Below, one piece after another: positions 3,861 through 58,538 of a stretch of DNA of 64,000 bases. The stretch lies in assembly GCF_025370755.1 (NCBI RefSeq), contig NZ_JAMXFC010000013.1:1-64000 (forward strand), read 5' to 3'. This DNA comes from Laspinema sp. D2d. Its GTDB lineage: Bacteria; Cyanobacteriota; Cyanobacteriia; Cyanobacteriales; Laspinemataceae. The notes under the pieces were generated by a model that was given only the letters and a program-made list of their open reading frames with translations, made no database searches and was not told the DNA's origin. Made by a program: the position numbers and the translations under genes. Position 1 is the stretch's first letter. The number at the start of each line of letters is the position of its first letter.

Positions 3861-4231
3861 ACGTTCCTCCATCCGGTTTGCGATCGCCTCCCACCGGCAG
3901 CAACTCCAGACCCCATTCAACATTTCCCTCTAATTGTAAAAAAATATTACAATTTGGCTGTTTCCCAAAAAATGTGATTTTTCTTTAGGCAGAGGGAATA
4001 GTAAAGATTAACAGAGGGCGACATCGGTGCTTCCCTAGAACAGGGACCTAATGATGAGCGGCGATCGCCGTTGCATAATTTAGCAGTCGCTCTCCTAGTA
4101 AAAGAATAAGCAGGGCAATTTAGCTTGGGTAAAACCACTCAATCTGTGACTCCATCACGGTTTGGGGGTTTTCCTGAAGTCAGAGCGCCCACCAGTAGGG
4201 GTTCGTAAATTGTATTAATTCAGAGGGCATC
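3861..4231. other. Intergenic region, no gene seen
   Basis: About 370 bp with scattered HIP1 sites. No convincing ORF or strong hairpin was found. It presumably contains the promoter of the large protease gene, with a purine-rich GAGGGC about 6 bp before the ATG at 4232. Confidence 0.5.
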
Positions 4232-7200
4232 ATGTTTGAACCACAAAACATCTCAGGAACTTCCAATCTGCTCACTGGCATGATGGGTGATACCCCTGCC
4301 ACAGACAATATTTTGGGTTTGGAACCTGTACAAAATTGGAACCCGGGGAGTGGAGGTCCTACCCTTGATGTCTCTACCCTAAACCCAGGTGCCCTCACCA
4401 ACCAGGAAGGAACACTCATTCAAGAGGAAACCCTACAAATTGCGCCAACGACTGGAACAACCGACGATATTGACCCAGTTACCAGAGAATCTTCCATACC
4501 CGTTGGACTAACCGCAGAAGCAGGCGATCGGCTATTTGATCCAGAGTATTACGCCCAAATTAATCCAGACTTAAGTGCCGCAGGTTTGAACACCGTCCCC
4601 CAACTCTTTCAACACTTCAAAACTCATGGATTAGGCGAAGGACGAGACTTTTCCCTCTGGACCAATCTGGAACATTACGCCGCCCAAAATCCCGACTTAG
4701 AGGCTGCTGGGTTAACGTTCCATGAACAAATTTATCAACATTTGCAGACATTTGGCCTAGCCGAAGGGCGCGAGTTTTCCCCTTGGGTCGATTTGCAATA
4801 TTATTTAGACAATAACGCCGACCTTAAAGCCGCATTCGGCGAGGATACCGCCAAAGCATTCGAGCATTTACAAATATTTGGATTAGAGGAAGGACGGCGC
4901 TTTTCTCCTAAACTTGACCTCAACTATTATTTAAGCCATTACAGCGATTTATCTGCGGAATTTGGTGACAATAAAAAACTGGCCTTTGGTCATTTGCAGC
5001 AATTTGGCGTAGCAGAGGGACGGCAATTCCTGCCCGAAATTTCCGAAGCAGCGACAGTCCAATCTTCCGAGGTAGAAAACTCGGCAATTGCCGAACAGAC
5101 GCAGGAGGGGATTTCAATCGTTTTTGAGACTCAAACAACTCCCACCACCAGCATTACCACAGCATCAGATGTGGAAGAAGAAACCAATACATCTGGCGAT
5201 TTAGATACGTTACCCGATGAAAGCGAAACCGCTGCCAGTGTCTCGATTGAAGTAGAAGAAGAAACCATTCCCGACACCTCTGATGAAGTAGAAGAAGAAA
5301 CCATTCCCGACACCTCTGATGAGTTAGAAGAAGAAACCATTCCCGACACCTCTGATGAAGTAGAAGAAGAAACTATTGCCGACACCTCTGATGAGGTAGA
5401 AGAAGACGAAGACAATGCCACCGCGTCCGATGATGAAGTAGAAGCAGAGCAACTGTCCCCAACGGTAACACTCTCTCAAACCTTGATGGGGTTAGAAGAA
5501 GAACCCACACCGCCTTTAGATTTGCCCGAGAATGCCGGAGGTGCTAATGCCAAGAAAAATCCCGCACCAAAACATTTAAAATTGGATGCCACTCAAGAAG
5601 AATATTATAAAGGAGGAACCGTTCGCCTGAATGGGTGGATATTTGACGCCAGTGGTGCCAACGATGTGGAACGAGTCGAATTTTCCCTCCACAAAACAGG
5701 GGAACAGTGGGAAGAAATTGAGAATTGGACGACCTTTAATATTTCCACAAAAGATGACCGATGGGCCTTTTTTGACTATTCCACCTTTGGGTTAGAACCG
5801 GGCAAATATCAGATTAAAGGATTTGCCTACGATAGCGAAGGCGGTAAGAGTAATGCAGCGGTGGCACACTTCAGCGTCAGTGCAGAAAATCCCCTGCCAC
5901 TGGTGGGAGTCATCGATACTGGATTTAATGCTAATAACATCGATATTGACTACAAACGGGCCGCATTAGGAACCGACTTTGTAGATGGCGATGATAACCC
6001 CTTGCTGGAAGAAGGCGAAGGCAGCGAACATGGAACGCATACGTTAGGAATTATCGGTGCAACCCAGAATAATGGGGTAGGAATATATGGGATTAATGAC
6101 CAAGCGCCCTTGTGGTTGAGTCGGGCGATCGGGTCGGGAAAATGGGGCGATGCCCTGATAGAATTTGTGGATTATGCCATTGCCTCGGAACAACCGACAG
6201 CTATAGCCAACCTCAGTTTAGATTTAACCCAAGTCGAGTCCGATGGAAGCATCAAAACCCGCTACGAATTCACACCAAAAGAACGGGAAGCGCTGGAATA
6301 TGCGCGTCAGAATGGCATCTTGGTCGTCGTTGCTGCCGGAAACGATGGCAGCGTCATGTCAGTATTGGGACAAGCATCCCAAGAATTTGACAATATTATC
6401 ACCGTAGGCGCGACCAACGGCAATCAACGGGCGGATTATTCCAGCTATGGTCGTCGCGGACCCGATATTATGGCAGAAGGCGGTAGTAGCGCTTCACCCA
6501 TTCTCTCCACTGCCGGTGAAGATGTCGGCACAATGGCAGGAACATCCATTGCAGCAGCACAAGTAACGGGTGTAGCATCTCTCGTATGGGAAGCAAACCC
6601 CGAGTTGAACTATCGGCAAATCATCGAAGCACTCAAGTCTACCGCAACAGATTTGAACATCCCAGGGGAAGATAGTGAGACAGGTGCCGGTTTGGTCAAC
6701 CCCGATGCAGCGGTAGCAAAAGCCAAGCAGATGACCCCGGAAGAATACGATCCAGAGGACTTTTTGACCCCAGATACTTGGGGTGGGGAAGGTCTGGTGA
6801 CCCCAGAGGAGCGAGCGGCTTATGACCTTGTTATGGGAGATTTTACTTCTATTATTTGGTCAACCAATGGTGTAAACCTCCGGAGTAGCACAAATTTAAG
6901 CGATCGCACCGATTTCAGTGTAGGCTATAACCAACGTCTGAATTTTGATGCTTGGACTTACGGTGAAGCAGTCCCCGATCTCACCACCAACGAACTAGAT
7001 GCTTTATGGTATCGGACAAACATATATGGAACTAATTATTGGGTGCCAAGCGCCTATACAAATGGCTATCCACCTGGAAACCCTCCTCTGCTTCCCCCCA
7101 ACGATTCTGCTCCGATTACAGATGATAACAGCGACACCTCGATTGAAGATCCAATTGTTAATGATGATATAGTTTCACCTCCTGTTAATGAACCTACTTT

Positions 7201-7912
7201 CAAAGTGCATAATTTTTTCTCTGCTGCTTATGGTGAAAACTCTTGGTTGGGTCAGCCAATTGGTGAACCGAGAATCGATGCAAGTGGATTCGTTTCTCAG
7301 GAATTTCAAAATGGGCGAATTGAGACCAATGGGCCTGTAACTTCCTGGTATGAAATTGGCGGCAGTGAATTCCCTTCCTATACGCCGCCCAATGAACCTG
7401 TTTACACTCCACCCGAAGCGTCTAATTCGGGTCTACAGATTGAAATATCCGATCATTACAATGCGTTTACTGATTCTGAATTAGCAATTATCGAACAGGC
7501 AGCACAAAATTGGGAAAATATTATTGTAAAAGATGTTACTGAAAGTGGCTTATTGAAACTTGCAGTCGTCAAAAAACCTTTGACGGGCGAGGAGGCTTAT
7601 TGGTTAGCTGGCACAAATCAAGGACAGCTCCCCGAGCGAAATTTTAACTTTGTAGAAGTTGATTTGGATGGAATAGACTATCATAATGTGATAGATTTCA
7701 ATGAATTCAAATTTGATGAATTAATAAACAATACCTACTTATTTACAAGAGTAGCTATGCATGAAATAGGTCATACATTGGGACTCCCCCACAGAGATGA
7801 TATACATAACTTAATGAATCATGATAGAATAGATGCTATCATGGAGCCAGTCTATCCTGTGTTAGAAAACCTTGGGTATGGGGTAAATCGGAATACTTTT
7901 ATTAAGTGGTAG
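4232..7912 (+). CDS. Dual-protease protein: subtilisin domain plus C-terminal metzincin
   Basis: 1226 residues, no classical signal peptide. In order: four roughly 45-residue repeats (about 100-270; pattern [17 protein letters not shown] ... GLGEGRDFS); a Glu/Asp-rich segment with 12-residue repeats [12 protein letters not shown] (about 315-405); an Ig-like beta domain (about 445-550); a peptidase S8 domain with Asp562 (VIDTG), His600 (HGTH), oxyanion Asn704 (AAGND) and Ser772 (GTSIAAAQV, Ala in place of the usual Pro); an SH3b-like domain (about 878-945); an LGFP-like stretch (about 1005-1035); and a C-terminal zinc protease with [11 protein letters not shown] at 1177-1187 and Met-turn Met1204 in AIMEP. 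Both catalytic sets are complete. It is probably secreted and Ca-binding through the acidic repeats (inference). It has no clear operon partner. Confidence 0.88.
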
Positions 7913-7984
7913 TTCTTTAGATAACAGGTAACCTGTTTTTTAGATTTGTTGTTTTTACCTGATCACCCCCGCTCTATAAAAAAA

Positions 7985-8097
7985 GCGATCGCCCTTTCTC
8001 CCACAGAGCGATCGCCTCTTTATCCCAGAGAGTGCTCGCTTTTTCCCACAGAGCGATCGCCCTTTTTCCCACAGAGCGATCGCCTTTTTCCCACAGC
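7985..8097. repeat. HIP1-anchored tandem repeat, about 5 units
   Basis: Five consecutive units of 21-24 bp. Four begin with the octamer GCGATCGC followed by CCTTTTTCCCACAGA-type sequence; the third has a degraded octamer (GTGCTCGC). Two similar units reappear at 8964-9010. The array lies directly downstream of the dual-protease gene. Confidence 0.85.
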
Positions 8098-8109
8098 CAA
8101 AAGCCGCTC

Positions 8110-8439
8110 TTAAAAGCCCCCCTTCCCAAGGGGGGTTGGGGGGATCCAACCCTCTAACTCCCGACAAACACCCTCAAAATTCTGTAACACATCAACATTG
8201 ATAAACCTAACTACCGTTATCCCATACCCTTCTAAAATCCGCGTCCTCTCTTCATCATAATTTTTGCCCTGTTGGGTAAAATGACTCTCTCCATCAATTT
8301 CAATAACCAACTTCAAACTCGCACAATAAAAGTCCACAATAAAGTTATCAATCGGGCGCTGTCGCAAAACACGCAAGGGAAAATTTCTCAAGCAATCCTG
8401 CCACAGTTTTTTCTCGGCAGGTGTGGGATTTTGCCGCAT
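8110..8439 (-). CDS. DUF559 endonuclease-like protein, C-terminus made of repeat DNA
   Basis: The protein matches the DUF559/Vsr-like nuclease fold: TPAEKKLWQDCLR, then RQRPIDNFIVDFYC and LKLVIEIDGESHF (Asp and Glu of the PD-(D/E)xK-like core), then YDEERTRILEGYGI. Family members usually begin with an FHLPYNPKL segment; that segment is encoded in frame upstream (about 8440-8495) but no ATG or GTG precedes it, so the start at 8439 may be a fallback and the true N-terminus damaged. The last residues, PPTPLGKGGF, are encoded by the dispersed CCCCCCTT...AAGGGGGG repeat, a common way for these genes to end. Function is unknown; it may be a remnant. Confidence 0.65.
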   Translation of the reverse strand: MRQNPTPAEKKLWQDCLRNFPLRVLRQRPIDNFIVDFYCASLKLVIEIDGESHFTQQGKNYDEERTRILEGYGITVVRFINVDVLQNFEGVCRELEGWIPPTPLGKGGF

Positions 8440-8574
8440 TTGTTTAGCAATGGAGATGAGTTTGGGATTGTAGGGTAGGTGAAAGTTGGAGTTGTTATGG
8501 TTTGGCGCGCTCCCCCCTGGCTTTCCGATGAATGATAGGGATTAAGATATTGTTAGTTCTATTTTAGGGGAGAT

Positions 8575-8710
8575 TAGACCTCTTGCATACATCTCTTAAG
8601 CCCCCGGGGAATAAACATTTATTCCTCTGGCTTCCCCCTTCTTAAGGGGGACGGGAGGGGGATAATCAGGGGGGTTGGGGGGATCAATCCGGAATTTTGC
8701 AAGAGGTCTA
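8575..8710. mobile_element. Small inverted-repeat element (MITE-like)
   Basis: The element is bounded by 13-bp perfect inverted repeats, TAGACCTCTTGCA at 8575-8587 and its complement at 8698-8710. The 136-bp body is C/G-rich and encodes nothing. A shorter relative with the same ends lies at 14919-15002 and a partial right end at about 26130-26187. No transposase is present in the window. Confidence 0.7.
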
Positions 8711-8754
8711 TTGAGCCTTCTCTCAGAGGGGAGATCTTGAGATACTACTAAGAG

Positions 8755-8963
8755 GCGATCGCGGGTGGGATCCCCCCAACCCCCCTTGGGAAGGGGGGCT
8801 AATTCATTGATATCTTGATGTATTGCGATCGCGGGTGGGATCCCCCCAACACCCCTTGGAAAGGGGGCTAATTCATTGATATTTTGATGTATTGCGAGCG
8901 CGGGTGGGATCCCCCCAACCCCCCTTGGGAAGGGGGGCTAATTCATTGATATCTTGATGTATT
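8755..8963. repeat. Three tandem 70-bp repeats
   Basis: Copies at 8755-8824 (70 bp), 8825-8893 (69 bp) and 8894-8963 (70 bp). Each has a HIP1 or HIP1-like octamer (the third is GCGAGCGC), GGGTGGGATCC, the palindromic CCCCCCTTGGGAAGGGGGG core and an AT-rich tail ending TTGATGTATT. Copy 2 has a few substitutions and one missing base. It lies just upstream of hicB. Confidence 0.92.
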
Positions 8964-9107
8964 GCGATCGCCCTTTTTCCCCACAGTGCGATCGCCTCTT
9001 TTTTCCCAGAGTTTCCTCCCTTTTATCGGCAGGAGGGCGATTGTAGATTATAATAGGCAAAGATTGACTTTTGGCTAACCCTGATAAAAATCAACTTGCC
9101 TCCAAAA

Positions 9108-9350
9108 ATGCTGACTCAATACATTCAAAGTGTTATGCACCGGGCCACTTATGAGTTGCTTGAAGATGATACGTTTTACGGCGAAATTCCTGGGTTTCCT
9201 GGGGTCTATGCTAATGCCGAAACCCTGGAATCCTGTAGAGACTTATTGCAGGAAATTTTGGAAGGCTGGATTATCTTAGGATTGCGATTACAGCATAACC
9301 TCCCACCTATCGAGGGCATTGATCTAACTCCACCACAAGAGGTCGCTTAA
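9108..9350 (+). CDS. hicB: HicB-family antitoxin
   Basis: 80 residues when begun at ATG 9108 (MLTQYIQSVMHRATYELL), the usual start for this subfamily; a TTG at 9096 is possible but adds four atypical residues. The HicB partial RNase H-like fold is seen in YGEIPGFPGVYANAETLESC and LLQEILEGWI. No long C-terminal DNA-binding domain is present, so this is the short form common in cyanobacteria. It overlaps hicA by one base (TAATG), so the two are translationally coupled, antitoxin first. It presumably binds and blocks HicA and may repress the operon. Confidence 0.9.
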   Translation: MLTQYIQSVMHRATYELLEDDTFYGEIPGFPGVYANAETLESCRDLLQEILEGWIILGLRLQHNLPPIEGIDLTPPQEVA

Positions 9351-9568
9351 TGCCCCCATTTGGACCCATTCAACGGCAAGATTTAATCCGTAACTTCAAA
9401 AAGTTGGGATTTGAAGGCCCCTATTCCGGTGGCAAACACCAGTATATGATTCAGGGAGAACTGAAGGTATGGATTCCTAATCCCCATCAAGGCGACATCG
9501 GCAAGAGCTTACTCGCTAGAATATTGACTCAGGCTAATATTACTAGAGAAGAATGGGAGAGGCTTTAA
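9350..9568 (+). CDS. hicA: HicA-family mRNA interferase toxin
   Basis: 72 residues with the double-stranded RNA-binding-like HicA fold. The signature is RQDLIRNFKKLGFEG followed by GGKHQYM, whose His is the catalytic residue, then WIPNPHQGDIGKSLLARIL and a C-terminal TREEWERL helix. Length and order fit a functional toxin. HicA cleaves mRNA and tmRNA in characterised systems. The ATG shares its A with the hicB stop. Unlike the DUF433/DUF5615 pair at the left edge of the window, no lesion is visible. Confidence 0.92.
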   Translation: MPPFGPIQRQDLIRNFKKLGFEGPYSGGKHQYMIQGELKVWIPNPHQGDIGKSLLARILTQANITREEWERL

Positions 9569-55568: not shown

Positions 55569-58538
55569 TTACCCCACTCCTGCTCGTCCTTCCGTAGATC
55601 CAAGCCGCAAAAAGTGATCATATCCACTAGGGAAATTACCGCCTGCTACGGCTGCGGCGACATCAGGATAAGTGGCCCGATAAAACTGTTCATTAAACAG
55701 AGGACTCGGTTGCCGTCCCTCCCTTTCCCCGGCGAAGGCAAAATGCTCAAAGCCACTGGCAATATTTCCGGCGGCGATCGCTGCGGCAACATCGGGATAA
55801 ATTGTCCGATAGAAGCCTTCATCAAAGAAACGGTTCGGATTGCGTCCCTCTTGTTGTCCAAACTGAATGTAATGGTTAAACCCGAGATTAATCAGATTTT
55901 CGGCAACAGCCGCTGCAATATCTGGGTAAGTATTCAGATAGAACCCTTCGTGGAATAATTGAGTCCGGCGATCGCGTCCCTCAAAGAATCCAAAATTTAA
56001 AAAATGTTCAAATCCACTCCGAAATCCTCCGGCGGCCACTGCTGCCGCTACACCCGGATTTTGGGATAAATAACGCCCTTCATTATAAAAAGGACTAGGT
56101 TGCCGTCTTTCAAGTTGCCCGAAGGAGAAGAAGTGATCAAATCCATTAATGAAGACACCCGAAGTTACTGCCTCAGCGACATCAGGATTATTGGACAGGT
56201 AAAAGCTTTCATCAAATAAGATATTCCCCAAGGGAGTGCCTATCAAGATCGATCCGCCACTGGAGGTTGAGAAGGCATCGATTAAATTGATAAAAGGTAA
56301 TTCTATCCTGGGGCCAGGTTGGGGCGTAATTTTAGCAAGAAAGGCATTGAAATTCCCCCCAAACTGATTCAAACTATTGGGTAAATCCGGTGAATAAGTA
56401 TTTCCAGCTAGATAAACTGTTCCTGCATTATCAACTTCAATGCCAGTACCCGTATCCTGAGCACTCCCACCTAGATAAGTGGAATATTCCACAGTACCAT
56501 CGGCAGTAAATTTCGTAACAAAGGCATCTCCTTCGCCGCTATAAGCTTGAAAGCCATTAGCAGCCGGGAAATTGGCAGAATTAGTTGTTCCAGTTACATA
56601 AGCATTACCGCTATTATCAACGGCAATTCCAGTGCCGTTATCATTACTGGTTCCTCCGAGTAATCTGGAATAAATCAGCCGACTGCCATCGTTCGCCAGT
56701 TTAGTGACAAAGGCGCTTTGTGAGTCACCGAGATTCGCTTCAAAGGGATTGATGGGGGGAGGAGACAGGAAGGTGCGGGGACTCCCGTTTTCGTCGGGGG
56801 AAAGCAGAATAGTTGATGGGTCAGAGAAGGTGCGATCGCCGATCGCCGGTACAGAGGGTAGAGGCACGAAAACCGGCAGCAACGGTGCATTTACCGTTCC
56901 GGTGATATACACATTTTGGTTAGTATCTACGGCGATACTTTCTCCCAGTTCACTTCCCGTTCCCCCGATATAGGTGGAGTAAACTAAATTTCCATCGGAA
57001 GCAAGTTTGGTGATAAAGGCATCTTGCACCCCGCCAAAGCTACTTTGAACGGCATTTTGGATGGGGAAGTTATTAGAATAAGTCGCGCCGGTTATATAAG
57101 CATTGCCGTTGCCATCGGTGGCAATTCCTAAACCTCCGTCATCATTATTACCCCCGAGATAAGTCGAGTACACTAACTGACCCTCAGGAGAAAGTTTCAC
57201 CGCAAAGGCATCTCCCAGGCTCAAGGAAAAATTGTTCTGAGCCCCGCCATAAGCGGGTTGAATGGCATTGAGGAGGGGAAAATCTGATGAAGTCGTTTCG
57301 CCGGTGATAAAAACATTGCCATTATTATCGGCAGCAATACTGCGAGCAGCATCGTAACTACTGCCCCCAAACAAGGTGGAATAAACTAAACTTCCGGTGC
57401 TAGAAAGTTTAGCGATAAAGGCTTGGTGGGATAGGGTTGAATTCCCTTGAATTGCATTCAGAATGGGAAAATCATTAGAAAGAGTTAAGCCAGTTACATA
57501 GGCATTTCCTGCATTATCGGTAGCAATTCCCTCCCCCTGATTAAACCCATTACCCCCCAAAAATGTGGTATAGAGTAATGTGCCATTATTAGACAGTTTG
57601 GAAATAAAAGCTTTTCCAGGAACTGCCGGGTTGCCTGTCGTGGGAAAGTCCGGTGAACTAACCGCTCCGATTAGATAAATATTTCCCGCGTCATCTACAG
57701 AAATATCCTGGGCTGAGTCAAATTGGCTACCCCCGAGATAGGTTGTATATTCTAAAGTGGGGTCGATCGCCAGAGGGACAGACGGATCATACTCGCCAAT
57801 GGTAAAGCCAACTTGTGCATTGTCTAAGAGTTGATAAGCCCCGCTGACGGTGACCCGTTCTCCGTTGATATCCTGGTAGAGATAGGGGGCAGATTCGACT
57901 AATTCACCGAAGGGAGTCTCGATTACCAATGCACCATCTTCTCGGATATTCAGGCGATCGCTCCCTTCATAGTTCATCCGAATTTGTCCGGGATCTACAC
58001 CCGGATTCACGATAAACTCACTCTTGAGTTCTCCCTCATTCCCCCCATAAATTAAATCAATTCCATCATAGAGATTTTGGTAGGCAATGCCTTGATAGGT
58101 AGGGATATTTTCATGCCATTGGGACGGATCATCTCCGGTGATAAAGTTAGCTACTCCCGGCAATGGTGCGACTGCCTCAATGGTCGGGTCTGGGTTAGCA
58201 TCGGCAAATGAAACCTTGACTTGATGAGAGATGGTTTCATCATTGATGATTTGGGATTTGCTTAAGACAATTTCATCCGGGGTAAAGAAAATATCATGTT
58301 GTGCGCCTTGGACAAGAAACTGCACCTCGGGGTCAAGTTGTCCAACATTGGCAATAAAACTTAAAGGAAGATTGTCAAAATCAACAGGAATCGAATCTGT
58401 TGCGGGGCTAAAAGAAACCGTGTTTTCAGCCATTCCCTGGGGATTTTGAAGGGAAGCAAGCTGATGATCAGAGGGAACCAGGGTACTTGGAATAGTTGGA
58501 GTCAGATCCCAAACTGACTCGGGTACAAGATTATCCAT
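55569..58538 (-). CDS. Large SBBP beta-propeller protein with C-terminal 45-residue repeats
   Basis: 989 residues. After a leaderless N-terminal 50, a beta-sandwich domain (about 55-245; FIANVGQLDPEVQFLVQGAQ) is followed by about nine SBBP blades (about 265-775) with the recurrent YSTYLGG ... DNNGNAYVTG ... FVTKL pattern. The last ~215 residues hold five copies of a repeat that pairs FDEGFYRTIYPDVAAAI with FEHFAFAGEREGRQPS. The same repeat type occurs in the dual-protease protein. It is probably a secreted or surface protein, possibly exported by a type I system. A hairpin lies 24 bp before the start. Confidence 0.85.
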   Translation of the reverse strand: MDNLVPESVWDLTPTIPSTLVPSDHQLASLQNPQGMAENTVSFSPATDSIPVDFDNLPLSFIANVGQLDPEVQFLVQGAQHDIFFTPDEIVLSKSQIINDETISHQVKVSFADANPDPTIEAVAPLPGVANFITGDDPSQWHENIPTYQGIAYQNLYDGIDLIYGGNEGELKSEFIVNPGVDPGQIRMNYEGSDRLNIREDGALVIETPFGELVESAPYLYQDINGERVTVSGAYQLLDNAQVGFTIGEYDPSVPLAIDPTLEYTTYLGGSQFDSAQDISVDDAGNIYLIGAVSSPDFPTTGNPAVPGKAFISKLSNNGTLLYTTFLGGNGFNQGEGIATDNAGNAYVTGLTLSNDFPILNAIQGNSTLSHQAFIAKLSSTGSLVYSTLFGGSSYDAARSIAADNNGNVFITGETTSSDFPLLNAIQPAYGGAQNNFSLSLGDAFAVKLSPEGQLVYSTYLGGNNDDGGLGIATDGNGNAYITGATYSNNFPIQNAVQSSFGGVQDAFITKLASDGNLVYSTYIGGTGSELGESIAVDTNQNVYITGTVNAPLLPVFVPLPSVPAIGDRTFSDPSTILLSPDENGSPRTFLSPPPINPFEANLGDSQSAFVTKLANDGSRLIYSRLLGGTSNDNGTGIAVDNSGNAYVTGTTNSANFPAANGFQAYSGEGDAFVTKFTADGTVEYSTYLGGSAQDTGTGIEVDNAGTVYLAGNTYSPDLPNSLNQFGGNFNAFLAKITPQPGPRIELPFINLIDAFSTSSGGSILIGTPLGNILFDESFYLSNNPDVAEAVTSGVFINGFDHFFSFGQLERRQPSPFYNEGRYLSQNPGVAAAVAAGGFRSGFEHFLNFGFFEGRDRRTQLFHEGFYLNTYPDIAAAVAENLINLGFNHYIQFGQQEGRNPNRFFDEGFYRTIYPDVAAAIAAGNIASGFEHFAFAGEREGRQPSPLFNEQFYRATYPDVAAAVAGGNFPSGYDHFLRLGSTEGRAGVG

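What the first reader, a model, noticed from the sequence alone, without database searches (positions are those of the whole stretch)
4232..7912. Two complete proteases of different classes in one polypeptide
A full subtilisin triad (Asp562, His600, Ser772) and a full metzincin site ([11 protein letters not shown] at 1177-1187 plus Met1204) occur in one 1226-residue chain, with SH3b-like and LGFP-like modules between them and an acidic repeat block before. Both active sites are seen directly; that both are active, that the chain is cut apart, or that one matures the other is inference. The subtilisin GTSMAxP motif has Ala for Pro.
Basis: partly seen in the sequence, partly recalled or inferred. 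Interest (0 to 1): 0.78.

Follow-up and report, generated by a model that had tools for sequence, protein, structure and literature searches.

The report
Cyanobacterial protease chassis with swappable hydrolases
A cyanobacterial protein really does carry two different proteases in one chain, and its relatives suggest that the first is a fixed carrier onto which different enzymes, many of them wall-cutting, have been exchanged, much as in known swappable bacterial weapons.

Summary
The ORF (4232-7912, 1226 aa) and both proteases are real. The subtilase has Asp562, His600, Asn704, Ser772. The last 159 residues model as a metzincin (pLDDT 89; best PDB matches MMPs). The Met-turn is most likely Met1195, not Met1204, and Ala for Pro after GTS is a clade trait. 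A chimeric assembly is unlikely: 7 of 16 distinct proteins with this metzincin also hold an S8 domain.

The larger finding: the subtilase is a chassis with exchangeable C-termini. A same-genus gene has a 98% identical S8 but LysM-M23 instead of the metzincin, with the downstream flank shared. DNA similarity to three related genes stops at the end of a junction motif, [14 protein letters not shown]. Among 81 chassis proteins, 43 carry M23, CHAP or lysozyme domains; payload follows the chassis tree barely better than shuffled labels. The window tail also models as an SH3b domain like those of lysostaphin and endolysins.

Best reading: a secreted, SH3b-targeted lytic exoenzyme with a swapped payload, like a polymorphic toxin, perhaps released by its own subtilase. 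Exchange is well supported; export, cleavage, target and activity are inferred. No immunity gene was found. Not mature enough to call a polymorphic toxin.

The parts
4232..7912 (+). whole gene, 1226 aa, S8 chassis plus metzincin tail
4535..5035 (+). four repeats of about 42 aa (starts at residues 102, 146, 188, 230; end approximate); no Pfam match; similar repeats at many other places of the own genome
5248..5406 (+). acidic 36-nt (12-aa) tandem repeat, 4.4 copies
5549..5887 (+). domain before the subtilase, called Ig-like here on weak matches only; DNA similarity to G003:C106 ends at 5887 and a different S8 follows there
5900..6691 (+). peptidase S8 domain (residues 557-820) with D562, H600, N704, S772
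6779..6820 (+). junction motif [14 protein letters not shown] (residues 850-863); DNA similarity to L041, L040 and L038 ends at 6818-6819
6815..7171 (+). SH3b-like module (stretch modelled, residues 862-980; confident to about residue 958)
7247..7321 (+). LGFP-like stretch (weak match)
7433..7909 (+). metzincin domain, residues 1068-1226; zinc motif 1177-1187, Met-turn M1195
8987..9545 (+). downstream flank shared at 95.7% with the M23-bearing gene of G004:C64; holds the UPF0150/HicA pair

Best explanation
The protein is one member of a cyanobacterial family of exoenzymes built as fixed chassis plus exchangeable payload. The chassis is an N-terminal region, a beta-type domain and a subtilase ending in a W-[SGDT]-G-E-G..T..ER junction motif. 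Behind the junction come wall-binding modules (SH3b, LysM, LGFP) and one or more hydrolases: M23, CHAP, lysozyme, C39, lipase or, here, a metzincin. Steps shown by sequence: both proteases have intact catalytic residues, and the payload has been replaced behind nearly identical chassis. Steps inferred: the protein is exported without a Sec signal, the SH3b module holds it on peptidoglycan or a similar wall polymer, the metzincin cuts a protein or peptide there, and the subtilase may cut the linker to free the payload. My odds: exchangeable payload 0.85; lytic or predatory action on other cells 0.5; self-release by the subtilase 0.35.
For: Chassis in 32 of 99 relatives and 20 of 386 phylum genomes at E <= 1e-60 (one search scored at most 4 candidates a genome, a lower bound). 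S8 97.9% identical to L041, which carries LysM and M23; DNA 95.8% up to nt 6819, then a gap, then the downstream flank at 95.7%. Two more genes stop matching at 6818-6819, which is the last codon of the junction motif. My own regular expression for the motif, written after seeing the rows, fits 45 of 49 proteins with a recognised payload and 8 of 31 without. Payload labels on the chassis tree: 19 changes among 48 rows, shuffles mean 20.6, 23 of 200 as low; of 18 pairs with S8 >= 90% identical, 9 differ in payload. 43 of 81 chassis proteins carry M23, CHAP or lysozyme (my seeds; Pfam on 68 tails: M23 24, CHAP 13, lysozyme 3). L191 and L192 hold S8, CHAP, lipase and the metzincin in one chain. 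SH3b model matches wall-binding domains of ALE-1, lysostaphin and endolysins. GC falls from 50.9% in the S8 part to 36.8% in the metzincin.
Against: 32 of 81 tails have no recognised payload. L042 keeps DNA similarity through the SH3b region to 7087, so the junction is not the border in every relative. The window payload is a protease, not a wall hydrolase. I found no downstream family tied to one payload within 2.5 kb, so no immunity candidate. The metzincin also occurs without S8 in 9 of 16 proteins, and once with a different S8 (L034). Three of the 16 metzincins have lost the second zinc His and 11 have an acidic residue at the third ligand place, so not all may be active. The leader motif of half the family is missing in the window protein. 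No expression, export or activity data.
Confidence: 0.5

Rival explanations
1. A digestive exoenzyme for scavenging: a multi-enzyme secreted protein that degrades dead cells or sheath for nutrients, with payload shuffling as ordinary domain shuffling of exoenzymes and no attack on living rivals.
For: Mixed cargo of proteases, lipases and wall hydrolases in one chain; no immunity gene found.
Against: Sharp replacement behind a nearly identical chassis at one motif and near-random payload on the tree are more than usual shuffling would need, though they do not exclude it.
Confidence: 0.3
2. Own-wall or sheath remodelling: the proteins act on the producer's own peptidoglycan or sheath, for example in filament breakage or gliding.
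For: M23, amidase and lysozyme domains are common in self-wall enzymes (established knowledge); producers are cyanobacteria.
Against: Patchy presence, 32 of 99 relatives and 1 chassis gene in the own genome, and rapid payload exchange fit poorly with a housekeeping role.
Confidence: 0.15
3. The subtilase is only a maturation protease for the metzincin, a two-step zymogen.
For: Both sites intact; subtilisins are listed as processing proteases of polymorphic toxins (PMC3482391, passages).
Against: The same chassis carries payloads that need no proteolytic activation as far as known; no cleavage site was identified here.
Confidence: 0.2
4. Assembly chimera of two genes.
For: Composition changes inside the ORF.
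Against: S8 plus this metzincin in 6 other distinct proteins; open frame without stop.
Confidence: 0.02

Closest known systems
Polymorphic toxins (CdiA, Rhs and others; PMC3482391, passages seen)
   Same: constant N-terminal part, exchangeable C-terminal enzyme behind a fixed junction motif; subtilisin listed there among processing proteases
   Different: no known trafficking domain, no immunity gene found, payloads are mostly lytic hydrolases; the words lysostaphin, CHAP and lytic do not occur in the held text
Lysostaphin, ALE-1 and phage endolysins
   Same: SH3b module of similar modelled fold next to a hydrolase; M23 and CHAP payloads in relatives
   Different: carry no subtilase chassis (recalled); the window payload is a metzincin
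Matrixin-like metzincins (MMPs, karilysin, myroilysin)
   Same: HExGHxLGLxH, Met-turn, best fold and profile matches
   Different: about 20% identity; two thirds of the relatives lack the third His
Pseudoalterin of Pseudoalteromonas sp. CF6-2 (PMC6962226, abstract and outline seen)
   Same: secreted metalloprotease that binds peptidoglycan and kills Gram-positive cells
   Different: not a metzincin (recalled: M23 family), type II secretion
Operons or chains with several peptidases (PMC7159879, passages seen)
   Same: precedent for two protease classes, trypsin and subtilisin, in one polypeptide
   Different: there they flank a NucA nuclease in NTP-dependent conflict systems

Membership tests
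Peptidase family S8 | Asp-His-Ser triad and oxyanion Asn in a subtilase domain | tested here: met
Peptidase family S8 | GTSMAxP around the Ser, with Pro | tested here: not met
   GTSIAAA; Ala at that place in 69 of 70 relatives with a residue; not needed for S8 membership, a trait of this clade
Metzincins | HExxHxxGxxH zinc motif | tested here: met
   1177-1187
Metzincins | Met-turn and metzincin fold | tested here: met
   M1195, model and Foldseek matches, TM only 0.44-0.60
Metzincins | zinc-dependent proteolysis | not testable with these tools
   needs protein
Polymorphic toxins | constant N-terminal part with exchangeable C-terminal domains | tested here: met
Polymorphic toxins | adjacent immunity gene matched to the payload | tested here: not met
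   no payload-linked family among ORFs of at least 45 aa within 2.5 kb downstream; a distant or very short gene would be missed
Polymorphic toxins | recognised trafficking domain or secretion system | tested here: inconclusive
   no known leader; LExIxTP motif in 36 of 72 5'-complete relatives, not in the window; HlyD genes near 2 chassis genes
SH3b wall-binding domains | SH3b fold | tested here: met
   model and best matches, no E <= 0.001; Pfam negative

The most novel reading that the evidence does not exclude
Cyanobacteria hold a polymorphic lytic-exoenzyme system: a subtilase chassis, marked by GTS[VI]A[TA]A and a W.GEG..T..ER junction, onto which wall hydrolases, lipases and metzincins are exchanged by recombination at the junction, exported by a non-Sec route led in many members by an N-terminal LExIxTP motif, and self-processed by the subtilase into a set of separate lytic enzymes.
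Probability: 0.35. Interest if true: 0.8.

Novelty: new variant of a known kind. Interest (0 to 1): 0.62.

Why it matters
If it holds, filamentous cyanobacteria own a family of modular lytic exoproteins, annotated in the two named plasmid records seen here only as an S8 family serine peptidase and a peptidoglycan binding domain-containing protein. It would extend the logic of polymorphic toxins to secreted lytic enzymes with a protease as carrier, offer natural chimeras for new wall-lytic enzymes, and give a simple test: does the subtilase free its own payload? Two protease classes in one chain would then be one case of a general rule rather than a curiosity.

Tried and rejected
Assembly error: rejected. 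Dead subtilase because of the Ala for Pro: rejected. Met1204 as Met-turn: rejected. Orphan payload cassettes downstream of the window gene: tblastn of 68 tails found none between 7913 and 16000 of the window at E <= 1e-4; the one window hit outside the gene is at 56328-57761, in a DUF7948/SBBP protein. Adjacent immunity genes: none payload-linked. The leader motif as a general export signal: the DNA pattern hit 5 places in 29 genomes, and by position all 5 lie at the start of chassis genes that I had fetched, so it looks family-specific; it is absent from the window protein. Control with non-chassis S8 proteins: none of 5 from the genus carries a recognised wall hydrolase, but L127 is cut by its contig end, in two others the S8 lies near the C-terminus, and L034, with a non-chassis S8, does carry the metzincin, so the control is weak. 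First genome-contig scan with one sequence found no relative; the scan with an alignment found 17 loci, of which I used the 6 long cyanobacterial ones and not the 11 short matches. Rows left out: 10 of 77 chassis tails (cut off or under 60 aa) from the Pfam tally; 7 of 81 S8 domains from the tree by length, and 26 further rows without a recognised payload from the change count; 4 weak or partial metzincin rows (G621, G634, G519, G591) were not fetched. Paper searches showed, in their listings, no paper on this architecture; that is the whole basis for calling it undescribed, and most subscription papers are not held.

Full report
Observation. The ORF at 4232-7912 is open for 1226 residues. Pfam finds Peptidase_S8 at 557-820 (E 1.1e-37) and Peptidase_M10 at 1159-1196 (E 2.2e-5, barely above its cut-off). 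Aligned with subtilisin BPN', D562, H600, N704 and S772 fall on the catalytic places. The S8 part is 50.9% G+C, the metzincin 36.8%.

The metzincin. Sixteen distinct proteins with this domain were aligned. H1177 and E1178 are invariant. The second His is lost in 3 of 16. The third ligand place is His in 5 of 16, the window among them, and acidic in 11. The column of M1195 is Met in 14 of 16, that of M1204 in 4 of 16 (counted by eye), so M1195 is the better Met-turn; its distance of 8 residues from the third His is that of matrixins (recalled). All 16 match Pfam M10 at E <= 0.1, the profile matches MMPs, karilysin and myroilysin at E about 0.001-0.002, and the AlphaFold2 model (pLDDT 89) has MMPs as best fold matches, with moderate TM of 0.44-0.60 in the rows shown. 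Of these 16 proteins 7 also hold an S8 domain, 6 of them of the window's chassis kind and one, L034, of another kind. The family was found in 18 of 388 genomes of the order, four of these rows weak or partial, and in six named cyanobacterial records.

The chassis. With residues 440-835 as query, 32 of 99 relatives and 20 of 386 genomes across the phylum match at E <= 1e-60 (the second scored at most 4 candidates a genome). I extracted 77 ORFs, with three from the metzincin search and the window 81. In 72 aligned S8 domains Asp is kept in 65 of 69 with a residue, His in 66 of 70, Asn in 70 of 72 and Ser in 67 of 69; Ala stands for the Pro of GTSMAxP in 69 of 70.

The tails. Pfam on 68 tails (the window and 67 complete ones, at most the last 600 residues) found M23 in 24, LGFP 17, SH3_3 13, CHAP 13, LysM 12, lysozyme 3, lipase 3, Amidase_3 2, SLT 2, M10 2. 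With my own seeds on all 81: M23 28, CHAP 14, metzincin 6, lipase 5, lysozyme 3, C39 1; 43 of 81 carry M23, CHAP or lysozyme, 32 carry nothing recognised. Some chains combine them: L046 CHAP, lysozyme and lipase; L188 M23 and metzincin; L191 and L192 CHAP, lipase and metzincin.

Exchange. L041 of the same genus has an S8 97.9% identical to the window's but ends in LysM and M23. Its DNA matches the window at 93-96% from 3934 to 6819, then not until 8987-9545, where the flank matches at 95.7%; upstream it does not match. L040 and L038 stop matching at 6818 and 6819. That is the last codon of [14 protein letters not shown], residues 850-863. L127, which shares the upstream genes, matches until 5887 and then has a different S8; its ORF is cut by the contig end. 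Against a universal border, L042 matches through the SH3b part to 7087 and L045 stops at 6781. A regular expression for the motif, written after seeing the rows, fits 45 of 49 proteins with a payload and 8 of 31 without. On a tree of 74 S8 domains, 48 rows with a known payload need 19 changes; 200 shuffles gave 20.6 on average and 23 were as low, so payload follows the chassis barely better than chance. Of 18 pairs with at least 90% identical S8, 9 differ in payload, of 70 pairs with at least 80%, 45. Pairs are not independent, combined labels raise the number of classes, and one row (L131) is cut off.

SH3b. The stretch after the junction models with pLDDT 82, and its best fold matches are bacterial SH3b wall-binding domains, among them ALE-1, lysostaphin and phage endolysins, though none at E <= 0.001. 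Pfam is silent.

Export. The window N-terminus shows no evident Sec signal by eye; no predictor was run. In 36 of 72 5'-complete chassis proteins an LExIxTP motif stands within the first 130 residues, not in the window protein. A strict DNA pattern of it hits 5 places in 29 genomes and the reversed control none; by coordinates all 5 are chassis genes. A PPIC-type isomerase gene follows four chassis genes (Pfam on three), and HlyD genes lie near two of the seven flanks that I listed, of ten fetched. This suggests, and does not show, export through an HlyD-type route.

Interpretation. Constant chassis, junction motif and exchanged enzyme are what polymorphic toxins show; subtilisin is among their listed processing proteases (PMC3482391, passages only). 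But no immunity gene was found within 2.5 kb downstream, and the cargo is mostly lytic enzymes. I therefore say that it works like a polymorphic system in its exchange, and do not file it as a polymorphic toxin. A secreted metalloprotease that kills by cutting peptidoglycan is known (pseudoalterin, PMC6962226, abstract).

Verdict. The architecture is recurrent in cyanobacteria, and it is part of a wider modular family. I found no description of it in eight paper searches, judged from their listings.

Noticed in passing
window 9096-9565: UPF0150-like gene followed at once by a HicA toxin gene, a likely HicBA-type pair, just downstream and conserved in G004:C64.
   Followed up: partly
window 8110-8439, minus strand: short DUF559 protein; 23-, 25- and 70-nt tandem arrays with GCGATCGC sites surround it (7984-9012).
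   Followed up: partly
L038 and L040, C-termini (also L145): a shared C-terminal region without Pfam match, about 300-500 aa, found on window-like chassis: perhaps an undescribed payload.
   Followed up: no
L191, L192, L195: metzincin domains with HEIGN instead of HEIGH: probably inactive copies.
   Followed up: partly
window 55569-58538, minus strand: 989-aa DUF7948 protein with SBBP beta-propeller repeats; its start region matches the same repeats as the window protein's N-terminus (G000:C10:55779-56249).
   Followed up: partly
own genome: the about 42-aa FDxxYY..NPDL..EGR repeat recurs at many places and has no Pfam family in the copy tested.
   Followed up: no
L214, Allocoleopsis franciscana PCC 7113 plasmid pMIC7113.03: a chassis gene with a CHAP tail lies on a plasmid among CRISPR-associated genes.
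   Followed up: no
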